Positions 23,474-31,250 of a stretch of 38,149 nucleotides of DNA are shown here, in pieces. The stretch's first letter is position 1. Every line of letters begins with the position of its first letter. The position numbers and the translations under genes are program-made. The notes beneath the pieces were generated by a model. It did not search any database and had not been told where the DNA came from. It was given only the letters and a program-made list of their open reading frames with translations. The DNA comes from Candidatus Parakkermansia intestinigallinarum (GTDB taxonomy: Bacteria > Verrucomicrobiota > Verrucomicrobiia > Verrucomicrobiales > Akkermansiaceae): contig DXFQ01000046.1 in assembly GCA_019114365.1 (NCBI GenBank), forward strand, positions 1 to 38,149, in the 5' to 3' direction.

Positions 23474-26992
<3,519 letters not shown>

Positions 26993-27027
26993 AGAACGCC
27001 GCCGCCCGCCACCGGCAAAGCTCCGCC

Positions 27028-28395
27028 ATGGATAAGCCTGACACCCCCTCTCCCGACAAGCCCGCACGAGCCGCAGCCTCGCCCGTCTCACCCCCATCGG
27101 ACGCAAGCCCGACCGCCGCCAGCGCGCCGACCGCCGCCCCGCAACACGCAAGCCCGACCGCCGCACCCGCGCCGAGCGCCGCCCCGCAACATGCAAGCCC
27201 GACCGCCGCACCCGCGCAGCCGAGCTCCCGCCCCTCCCTCTGGCAGGGCGCCCTCGCCCTCAGCCTGCTGGGCATCGTCGCCTGCCTGCTCTACCTCTAC
27301 GCGATACCGCAGCAGGACAGCGATGCGCCCGAGACGCAACCCACCATCACCCTGCCCGAGGGCGGCGTCCGAAGCGACGCCTTTTCGCTGCGCCTGCTGC
27401 AAGCGGCTGCACGCCAGAGCAGCGGCAACGCCGTCGTGTCCCCGGCCATGGTGACGGAGATGATACTGGCGCTGCGCGAAATCGACGGCCGGCCGATCGA
27501 CGAAAGCTGCCGCCACTTCGGGCTGAGCGCGACGCAAATCTCCCCCTCGACCCTGCCGCTCTACGCGATGCAACTCTTCGCCGACGAGCAGCAGGAACTC
27601 ACGGCAGAACACCGAGACATCGTCTCCGTACCGCTTGCGCGCCAATACCGCTCCTGCCTCAGCCTCATCAACCGCCTGAGCGCCGCCGACCCCGGCAAAA
27701 ATTCCCTGGTGCTGATCGACTCGGATCTCTCACCGCAGATGCAGATTCTGGCGGTCGCCGACCTGAGCTGGGAGCCGCGATGGCTCACCCCCATCAGCAA
27801 AGACCTGCGGCAAAACCTCCCCTTTTACGGCCGAGGGGCCCAACCCGAAGTCCCCACCATGTGCACAACGGCCCGCTACCGCTGCGCCGAAGCAGCCGAC
27901 GGCTCGTGGACGGCAGTGACGCTTTTTCTGCGCCGCGATGAAAAAGAAGGCGACTCGCTGGGCTACACCATCGTCATGCCGAAAGGCAACGTGCGAGACT
28001 TCGTCGGCCACATGACCCTCGAACAACTCAACGCCATACGGGCGGCTCTTCTCGAAGCCCCCGAGCGCCCCGTCTGCCTGCAGATTCCCGTCCTGCACAT
28101 CAGCTCCGGCGGCGTGCAGGACATGCTGCCCCTGCTCCGCAGCATGAACATCGACCCCATGCCGCGCTCGCGAGCCGGAGAGAACGAAGGGCAAGCCATG
28201 CGGGGAGCGCTCTACCTGCGCTTCAACCTGCGCCTGGCGGAAAGCACGGATGAGGAAATCGAAAACACCGGCGGCGCTTCGCGTGCGGGCAACGACGGCC
28301 CGACGCTCACCTTCTCGCGTCCCTTTGTCTGGTGGATCAGCGACGCCGCATCCGACGCCCCCTTCCTCTTCGCCGGCATCACCGAAGCGCCGTGA
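27028..28395 (+). CDS. Divergent membrane-anchored serpin-like protein
   Basis: Ala/Pro-rich N-term, one TM helix, then serpin landmarks: FSLRLLQAAARQSSGNAVVSPAMV, ADLSWEPRWLTPISKDLRQNLPFY, PTMCTTARYRCAE, IPVLHISSGG, LTFSRPFVWWISDAASDAPFLFAGI. Confidence 0.75.
   Translation: MDKPDTPSPDKPARAAASPVSPPSDASPTAASAPTAAPQHASPTAAPAPSAAPQHASPTAAPAQPSSRPSLWQGALALSLLGIVACLLYLYAIPQQDSDAPETQPTITLPEGGVRSDAFSLRLLQAAARQSSGNAVVSPAMVTEMILALREIDGRPIDESCRHFGLSATQISPSTLPLYAMQLFADEQQELTAEHRDIVSVPLARQYRSCLSLINRLSAADPGKNSLVLIDSDLSPQMQILAVADLSWEPRWLTPISKDLRQNLPFYGRGAQPEVPTMCTTARYRCAEAADGSWTAVTLFLRRDEKEGDSLGYTIVMPKGNVRDFVGHMTLEQLNAIRAALLEAPERPVCLQIPVLHISSGGVQDMLPLLRSMNIDPMPRSRAGENEGQAMRGALYLRFNLRLAESTDEEIENTGGASRAGNDGPTLTFSRPFVWWISDAASDAPFLFAGITEAP
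27100..27225 (+). repeat. Coding 45-bp (15 aa) tandem repeat in the serpin-like N-terminus
   Basis: ASPTAASAPTAAPQH / ASPTAAPAPSAAPQH / ASPTAAPAQPSS. Confidence 0.8.
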
Positions 28396-29810: not shown

Positions 29811-31210
29811 CAGTTGCTCTCTTTGATGTGCTCGACCATGCGGTAGGCCTGCTCGGGGACGTACTCTTTCCACTGTTCGTCGTCGGCGCGTATCATGCGG
29901 ATGATGTCGCGCGGGGTCTGGAAGAGGAGTTTTTGGTTGAAGTAGGGGACGTCGACGATGTCTCCGTTGGCGCAGAGGTGGCGGTAGAGGTAGTGGTATT
30001 TCTCCGGGGCGCGGTAGGTGGTGGCGGTGACGAATTCTCCGGTTTTGCGGTTGATCCACGGGGTGACGTAGAATTTCGTGCGGTTGACGAAGATGTGCCC
30101 CATGGTGGCGAGGATGCCGCCGGGTGTGTCAGCCCATTTTTCTTTGAAGACTTCGTTGAGCAGGCCGATGGAGAGGGCGATGGCGACGGGTTCTCTGGTG
30201 TATTGGTTGAGGAGGGTGGAGATGCGGTGGAAGTGGGTGATGTTCGTCACCATGACGGTTTTGCCGAGGGCGGCGAGGGCGTCGGCTCGGTCGATAAAGT
30301 CGAGCAGGTCGACGTCGCGCCCGCGCAGGAGGTTGGAGAGGGAGATTTCGCAGATGTCGATTTCTCGGCTGCGCTGCTCTTCGGGCAGGGATTCGTAAAA
30401 TTTGCTCCGCACGCTGTCCATCATTTCCATGTGGATTTTGCACAGCGGCAGGAAGCTGCCGCGCATGAGTACGATGGGGCGTTTGTAGAGGAGGTCGGCC
30501 GGCTGCGCGACGGTGCCGTCGGGGCAGAAGAGGGTGGCTTCGGAGAGGCCGCTCTGGACGAGTTGGAGGGCGAGTATTCGGTTGTCGAACATGCTGAAGC
30601 CGTGCCCCGAGAAGCGCATGAAGTCGACTTCGTAGAAGCTGCGATCGAGGTTGGCGCCGATGTTGAGGACGAACTCGTCCATGCGCTCGCGCTTGTAGAA
30701 GAGCGAGTAGAGGACGTTGACGCCGAGGATGCCCAGCACGCGCATCTGGATGTCGTGGTCGGGGACCAGGAGGCGGACGTGGAGGACGAAGTCGCTGGGC
30801 GGGGCTTCGGGTTTGAGCTGGAAGCGCACGCCGATCCACGCGGCCCAGGGGCCGTTGTCTCTGTAGCCTTTGCATTTGACGGTGTTGCAGAAGGCGAAGA
30901 AGCAGGTGTCTTTGCCGCGCTTTTCTCCGAGGTGGTTGATGAGGGTTTCGTATTCGCACTCCATCATTTGCTTGAGGCGCTCTTCGGAGACGTAGCGTTT
31001 GACGGGGCCGTAGAGGCTGTCGCTGACGGTCATGTCGTAGGCCGAGATGGTTTTGGCGACGGTGCCGGCGGCTCCGGAGGAGCGGAAGAACCAGTTGGCG
31101 GTTTCTTGCCCGGCGCCGATTTCTGCAAAGGAGCCGTAGCACTGCTTGTCCATGTTGATGCGGAAGGCTTTCTCCTGCGTGGCGGCAAGCGACTGGGTGA
31201 CGGAGGACAT
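29810..31210 (-). CDS. Conserved uncharacterised protein (SFAEIGAGQE...GGAAGT-like family)
   Basis: 466 aa ORF with non-repetitive globular composition, coupled (TGATG) to sufS. Confidence 0.75.
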   Translation of the reverse strand: MSSVTQSLAATQEKAFRINMDKQCYGSFAEIGAGQETANWFFRSSGAAGTVAKTISAYDMTVSDSLYGPVKRYVSEERLKQMMECEYETLINHLGEKRGKDTCFFAFCNTVKCKGYRDNGPWAAWIGVRFQLKPEAPPSDFVLHVRLLVPDHDIQMRVLGILGVNVLYSLFYKRERMDEFVLNIGANLDRSFYEVDFMRFSGHGFSMFDNRILALQLVQSGLSEATLFCPDGTVAQPADLLYKRPIVLMRGSFLPLCKIHMEMMDSVRSKFYESLPEEQRSREIDICEISLSNLLRGRDVDLLDFIDRADALAALGKTVMVTNITHFHRISTLLNQYTREPVAIALSIGLLNEVFKEKWADTPGGILATMGHIFVNRTKFYVTPWINRKTGEFVTATTYRAPEKYHYLYRHLCANGDIVDVPYFNQKLLFQTPRDIIRMIRADDEQWKEYVPEQAYRMVEHIKESN

Positions 31211-31250
31211 GGGGAGTTGTGAGTGCAAGGTTATACGGGGTTCGGATGGG

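What the first reader, a model, noticed from the sequence alone, without database searches (positions are those of the whole stretch)
27028..28395. Membrane-anchored divergent serpin with atypical reactive-centre loop
The protein follows serpin landmarks in order from helix A (SGNAVVSPAMV) through strand 5B (LTFSRPFVWWI...FLFAGI). The segment corresponding to the hinge/RCL is ESTDEEIENTGGASRAGNDGPTLT, polar and acidic with no Ala/Thr-rich P12-P8 hinge and about 2 residues shorter than in alpha1-antitrypsin. It sits behind one TM helix and an Ala/Pro repeat stalk. It could be a non-inhibitory serpin or one with different loop chemistry facing the periplasm or outside. Bacterial serpins are known; this form looks unusual.
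Basis: partly seen in the sequence, partly recalled or inferred. Interest (0 to 1): 0.6.

Follow-up and report, generated by a model that had tools for sequence, protein, structure and literature searches.

The report
Membrane-tethered serpin that lost its trap
In gut bacteria of the genus Akkermansia, a gene that sits directly behind a DNA-polymerase gene encodes a protein with the shape of a serpin (a protease-killing protein), anchored in the membrane and with its trigger loop lost in all 44 species that carry it, so it most likely does something other than inhibit proteases.

Summary
ORF 27028-28395 (+) is a serpin by sequence (Pfam E 1e-12) and by predicted fold, with one N-terminal membrane helix and no inhibitory hinge. 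Two details are corrected. The Ala/Pro repeats lie on the cytoplasmic side of the helix, so they are not a stalk. The window's loop is not short (24 residues), although its orthologs' loops are.

It is not a one-off. It belongs to a clade of 44 orthologs among 76 genomes of one genus (Akkermansia, mostly MAGs from herbivore guts). All sit directly downstream of dnaE on the same strand, usually with the start codon on or within a few bases of the dnaE stop. The clade is monophyletic (100/99), nested among the genus's canonical serpins, inherited with dnaE and under purifying selection. All members lost the E-x-G-T-x-A-A-A hinge; the loop is usually shortened and shutter residues are lost. The genus's canonical serpins, including this genome's second serpin, keep the hinge. 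By my reading, half the carriers have no other detectable serpin.

Best reading: a non-inhibitory serpin, tethered in the inner membrane and facing the periplasm, probably a binding or scaffold protein co-expressed with dnaE. New variant of a known kind; the ligand is unknown.

The parts
27028..28395 (+). dnaE-linked serpin (DLS), 455 aa: membrane-tethered serpin-fold protein without inhibitory hinge
   Evidence: ORF; PF00079 E 1.2e-12; AF2 model and Foldseek; 43 syntenic orthologs
27028..27237 (+). N-terminal Ala/Pro/Ser-rich tail (residues 1-70), predicted disordered and cytoplasmic; contains three 45-nt repeat units at 27070-27217
   Evidence: pLDDT below 50; repeats; positive-inside topology; absent or short in orthologs
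27238..27303 (+). single transmembrane helix, residues 71-92, uncleaved signal-anchor type, N-in/C-out
   Evidence: helix in the model, block pLDDT 90-95 over residues 71-90; hydropathy 2.41, no lipobox, N-side charge +1, C-side -3
27376..28392 (+). serpin domain, residues about 117-455
28204..28236 (+). strand s5A equivalent, residues 393-403
   Evidence: DSSP on the model, joint alignment
28240..28311 (+). reactive-centre-loop position, residues 405-428 ESTDEEIENTGGASRAGNDGPTLT, hinge lost
   Evidence: joint alignment with 22 canonical serpins of the genus
28324..28383 (+). C-terminal strands s4B/s5B, residues 433-452 (FVWW...FLFAG), with invariant W435 and G450
23474..26992 (+). dnaE (DNA polymerase III subunit alpha), upstream gene of the conserved pair; 35-nt gap to DLS here
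   Evidence: NCBIfam NF004226 1277 bits; pair conserved in 44 of 76 genomes

Best explanation
The gene encodes a paralogous serpin that has given up protease trapping. It is inserted in the inner membrane by one N-terminal helix (N-in) and presents a serpin-fold domain to the periplasm. Because the hinge is gone, the loop is usually too short and shutter residues are lost, it should not insert its loop into sheet A after cleavage and should not form covalent protease complexes. It most likely works as a membrane-tethered binding or scaffold protein, functionally comparable to non-inhibitory serpins such as HSP47, ovalbumin or maspin, and is made together with DnaE by read-through and usually translational coupling. 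SHOWN by computation: serpin homology and fold, hinge loss across the clade, conserved position behind dnaE, single clade, purifying selection, one TM helix. INFERRED: periplasmic face, absence of inhibition, coupled expression. GUESSED: that it binds a client or ligand; none is identified, and no functional link to replication is shown beyond the shared gene arrangement.
For: All 44 members hit PF00079. Their profile finds 199 PDB serpin sequences, best 7e-34. Two AF2 models, pLDDT 83.8 and 90.9, match native-state serpins. 44 of 76 genomes of the genus have the gene directly behind dnaE. Among the 43 others, 42 start within -26..+9 nt of the dnaE stop and 22 overlap it as T(G/A)ATG. DLS forms one clade, 100/99, separate from canonical serpins. 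P15 Gly and P14 Thr are each 0.86 and P12 and P10 Ala 1.0 in canonical genus serpins; at these positions DLS has no dominant residue. Loop length is median 20 (14-24, one 42) against 28.5 (24-31), and small residues at P14-P9 are 0.42 against 0.84. The shutter Ser of 'SP' is S 1.00 in canonical and A 0.66 in DLS, and the s3A Asn goes from 0.82 to 0.18. dN/dS is about 0.08-0.42 in the domain. DLS and DnaE distances correlate (Mantel r 0.86, 0 of 2000 permutations). Only DLS is found as a serpin in about 22 of 44 carriers (my reading).
Against: No biochemistry exists. A few eukaryotic serpins with poor hinges still act as weak or substrate-like inhibitors (general knowledge). The window's own loop is full length and the G089 ortholog has a 42-residue loop. 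The dN/dS test could not be made for the window gene itself, because its nearest relative is 40% identical. The missing canonical serpins are judged from MAGs of 71-99% completeness. No ligand or partner gene is conserved next to it.
Confidence: 0.78

Rival explanations
1. It is still a protease inhibitor, using an atypical loop (reversible or substrate-like, without full loop insertion) to protect the cell envelope from host or self proteases.
For: Serpin fold kept. The loop is the fastest-evolving part, with dN often 2-3 times the body, as expected of a bait loop. Canonical serpins in the genus look inhibitory. Membrane-anchored prokaryotic serpins are known (PMC8233489).
Against: Hinge lost in all 44 members, loop shortened in most to 14-21 residues, shutter residues lost. 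Fast loop change also fits loss of constraint.
Confidence: 0.12
2. It is a decaying duplicate of a canonical serpin that persists only because it hitchhikes behind dnaE.
For: Low identity between orthologs (mean 31% against 79% for DnaE). Not found behind dnaE in 32 of 76 genomes of the genus.
Against: Open reading frames across 44 species, dN/dS well below 1, several invariant or near-invariant residues, conserved TM helix, confident folds, and kept as sole serpin in about half of the carriers.
Confidence: 0.07
3. It is a partner or regulator of the canonical secreted serpins, for example a tethered decoy or chaperone for them.
For: It arose among the genus's canonical serpins, and half of the carriers also have canonical ones, including this genome.
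Against: About 22 of 44 carriers have no other PF00079 hit (my reading), and several genomes have canonical serpins without DLS (G013, G015, G033).
Confidence: 0.08
4. It releases a signal peptide or switches affinity when cut in the loop, like angiotensinogen or hormone-binding serpins.
For: Tethered and periplasmic by prediction, and the loop is predicted without strand insertion in the models.
Against: Hormone-binding serpins use the S-to-R transition (PMC8233489), which needs the hinge lost here. No conserved loop motif exists.
Confidence: 0.04

Closest known systems
Canonical (hinge-bearing) serpins of the same genus, e.g. this genome's G000:C35 (L001)
   Same: Same PF00079 fold, and many shared conserved positions (I337-R338, W435, G450). 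DLS arose among them.
   Different: They keep E-x-G-T-x-A-A-A-x-T, loops of 24-31 residues, the shutter S and N, and mostly cleavable signal peptides or lipoboxes. None of those in the tree clusters with DLS.
Streptomyces Group U serpins proposed to be non-inhibitory (PMC8233489)
   Same: Bacterial serpins deviating in breach and shutter regions.
   Different: Many of those retain the RCL hinge motif; DLS lost it in every member, is membrane-tethered and is locked to dnaE. Sequence comparison between the two groups was not run.
Non-inhibitory eukaryotic serpins (HSP47/SERPINH1, maspin, ovalbumin)
   Same: Serpin fold without working hinge. Maspin and HSP47 structures are among the Foldseek matches, S-ovalbumin among those of an ortholog.
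   Different: Different clades and cell type; no shared ligand evidence.
Inhibitory bacterial serpins chloropin, miropin, siropins, thermopin, tengpin
   Same: Bacterial, serpin fold (chloropin 8gxv matched), usually exported.
   Different: Chloropin has the ExGTEAAAA-type hinge and forms covalent protease complexes (PMC10090351), and the paper on Groups T and U calls most of them inhibitory (PMC8233489); DLS lacks the hinge.

Membership tests
Serpin superfamily (PF00079) | Sequence match to the family above its cut-off | tested here: met
   Window 48.2 bits, cut-off 27; all 44 orthologs match at E 0.01 or better
Serpin superfamily (PF00079) | Serpin fold with sheets A, B and C and s4B/s5B at the C-terminus | tested here: met
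   AF2 models and Foldseek, top 50 matches all serpins in both searches
Inhibitory serpins | Hinge P17-P9 of the ExGTEAAAA type | tested here: not met
   Lost in the window and with no consensus left in the 44-member clade; kept in 22 canonical genus serpins
Inhibitory serpins | Loop long enough to insert as strand s4A | tested here: inconclusive
   Window 24 residues, normal length; orthologs median 20, minimum 14
Inhibitory serpins | Conserved shutter residues (Ser of 'SP' on helix B, Asn on s3A) | tested here: not met
   Clade-level: S 1.00 to A 0.66, N 0.82 to 0.18. The window itself keeps the Ser (S138) but has A244 for the Asn
Inhibitory serpins | SDS-stable covalent complex with a protease, S-to-R transition | not testable with these tools
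   Needs purified protein
Membrane-tethered (signal-anchor) proteins | One N-terminal helix, positive-inside, no lipobox or clear cleavage site | tested here: met
   Hydropathy and charge scan (one row, L114, picked a wrong segment) and model helices; cleavage not excluded experimentally
dnaE-linked clade (defined here) | Directly downstream of dnaE, same strand, monophyletic | tested here: met

The most novel reading that the evidence does not exclude
A genus-wide bacterial serpin family that abandoned protease inhibition and became a periplasmic, membrane-tethered chaperone or receptor-like binding protein, with its production wired to the replicative polymerase gene. It would be a clear orthologous family of non-inhibitory serpins in bacteria, and possibly an envelope factor dosed with replication.
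Probability: 0.35. Interest if true: 0.72.

Novelty: new variant of a known kind. Interest (0 to 1): 0.52.

Why it matters
Bacterial serpins are generally read as protease inhibitors, and PMC10090351 states that it remains unknown whether prokaryotic serpins have non-inhibitory functions. Here is a natural experiment: 44 orthologs that all lost the trap, about half of them in species with no other detectable serpin, beside canonical paralogs that kept it. It gives a concrete gene family to test, and a way to see what the serpin fold is kept for when inhibition is gone. It also warns that a PF00079 hit in these gut bacteria must not be annotated as a protease inhibitor without checking the hinge.

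Tried and rejected
1) Chance or a non-serpin ORF: rejected. 2) Window-specific oddity: rejected, 43 syntenic orthologs. 3) A conserved operon beyond dnaE-DLS: the genes after DLS differ between species; only G089 appears, by the start of its proteins, to share the convergent cysteine-desulfurase neighbour. 4) DLS in viral contigs: none found with the window protein. 5) DLS outside the genus: among 289 genomes of the order, non-genus matches stay at or below 96 bits, against 287 or more for the true members listed. 6) Hidden divergent DLS behind dnaE in DLS-less genomes: an unfiltered HMM search found nothing; G008 and G014 carry what looks like a signal peptidase I (lepB) there, read by eye. 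7) NCBIfam has no model for this protein or for the canonical paralog. 8) Terminator between dnaE and DLS: none found. 10) A paper search for serpin + Verrucomicrobia + hinge region found nothing.

Full report
What is there. The ORF 27028-28395 on the + strand is real. Its 455-residue product matches Pfam Serpin at E 1.2e-12 over residues 229-450. A profile of its family finds 199 distinct serpin sequences in the PDB, best E 7e-34. The AlphaFold2 model of the window protein (pLDDT 83.8; 277 residues at 90 or more) shows a disordered tail 1-67, a helix 71-92 and a serpin domain from about 117 to the end. Foldseek returns serpins only among the top 50: antithrombin 3.8e-21, PAI-1, maspin, conserpin, chloropin. 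An ortholog with a 14-residue loop folds even more confidently (pLDDT 90.9) with the same kind of matches.

Where it comes from. The window lies in a 2.1-Mb draft genome. A search with the C-terminus of its dnaE finds genomes titled Akkermansia sp. or Akkermansiaceae from goat, sheep, cattle, buffalo, deer, horse and rabbit guts. The same genome carries a second serpin on another contig (L001), with a perfect-looking inhibitory hinge EQGTKAAAVTG and a cleavable-looking signal peptide.

A conserved dnaE-serpin pair. dnaE was located in all 76 genomes of the genus and the DNA behind it was fetched for 69 of them; the window supplies its own. In 43 of the fetched loci plus the window, a homolog of the window protein sits immediately behind dnaE on the same strand. 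Its start codon lies within -26 to +9 nt of the dnaE stop in 42 of 43, and in 22 it overlaps the stop as T(G/A)ATG. In the window the gap is 35 nt, with no terminator-like site in it. I call the family DLS, dnaE-linked serpin. It was not found behind dnaE in the Akkermansia genomes with larger assemblies that were fetched, where an unrelated ORF (by its start, an acetyltransferase-like protein) usually takes the place. An unfiltered HMM search of 18 DLS-less loci found no hidden copy. In 289 genomes of the order, nothing outside the genus scores above 96 bits with the family profile, whereas the members listed score 287-489.

One origin, vertical descent, selection. In a maximum-likelihood tree of 71 serpins, the 44 DLS form one group with support 100/99, next to canonical serpins of the same genus. 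One member, G089, has a long branch. DLS and DnaE distances over 30 genomes correlate (Mantel r 0.86, 0 of 2000 permutations), although DLS is far faster (mean identity 31% against 79%). For pairs with at least 55% identity, dN/dS in the domain is about 0.08-0.42, so the protein is maintained. The window gene itself has no relative near enough for this test.

The trap is gone. Joint alignment with 22 canonical genus serpins gives a clean contrast. Canonical: P17 E 1.00, P15 G 0.86, P14 T 0.86, P12 A 1.00, P10 A 1.00; loop from P17 to F-x-R-P 24-31 residues; small residues 84% at P14-P9. DLS: P17 E kept in 0.77, but the rest has no consensus; loop median 20, minimum 14, one outlier of 42; small residues 42%. 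The shutter Ser before the invariant Pro of helix B is 1.00 in canonical serpins and mostly Ala in DLS (the window keeps Ser 138); the s3A Asn falls from 0.82 to 0.18. The window protein has a full-length loop, ESTDEEIENTGGASRAGNDGPTLT, that is acidic and hinge-less. P17-P9 ExGTEAAAA is the motif used in the literature to call a bacterial serpin inhibitory (PMC8233489, PMC10090351). What DLS gained is a partly conserved F-x-N-A-x-G-x-x-P turn (N 0.75, A 0.86, P 0.89) at the equivalent of the s4C/s3C turn near the gate. The window itself has lost the N and A (F-Y-G-R-G-A-Q-P). This is a candidate contact surface, inference only.

Topology. DLS members have one N-terminal hydrophobic helix, usually with positive charge before it, no convincing lipobox and no obvious cleavage site, whereas canonical paralogs look like signal-peptide or lipoprotein exports. 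The serpin domain should therefore face the periplasm. The Ala/Pro repeats of the window protein (three 45-nt units) precede the helix and would be cytoplasmic; they are a species peculiarity and not a stalk.

Mechanism. The most economical account is a paralog that duplicated inside the genus's serpin expansion, landed behind dnaE, lost the suicide-trap machinery and was kept as a tethered serpin-fold domain. Since about 22 of 44 carriers have no other PF00079 hit (my reading; MAGs, so some may be missed), it does not depend on canonical serpins. Binding or scaffolding in the envelope is the likeliest role, but no ligand is identified and the genes after DLS are not conserved. The link to dnaE is shown as a conserved arrangement; a functional link to replication is not shown.

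Novelty. Non-inhibitory serpins are well known in eukaryotes. For bacteria a Streptomyces clade has been suspected on breach and shutter grounds, although many members keep the hinge (PMC8233489), and a 2023 paper states that it remains unknown whether prokaryotic serpins have non-inhibitory functions (PMC10090351). The paper searches and look-ups made here turned up no mention of this family, but most subscription journals are not in the library. I rate it a new variant of a known kind.

Noticed in passing
G013:C1, G013:C18, G013:C36; G002:C19 and G070:C17: Some genomes of the genus hold many canonical serpins in tandem arrays: 12 matches in G013, including equal-scoring arrays on two contigs, and several adjacent copies in G002 and G070. 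Their loops may diversify for host or diet proteases.
   Followed up: no
L144 and L147 (G008, G014), just behind dnaE: In two DLS-less species the slot behind dnaE holds what reads like a signal peptidase I (lepB), judged by eye only.
   Followed up: partly
window 23489-27211, - strand: A 1240-aa open frame lies antisense to dnaE; most likely an artefact of the high GC at codon position 3 (0.86 in dnaE).
   Followed up: no
window 29813-31225, - strand: A protein of about 470-480 aa with no Pfam match, downstream of the cysteine desulfurase-like gene; G089 appears to have the same order behind its DLS.
   Followed up: partly
G031:C58, G001:C4, G019:C35: One search reported in-frame stops for some homologs (for example G031:C58, 2 TAG). 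For these the match begins inside the end of dnaE (coordinates), so the stops probably lie before the DLS start and the genes look intact.
   Followed up: partly
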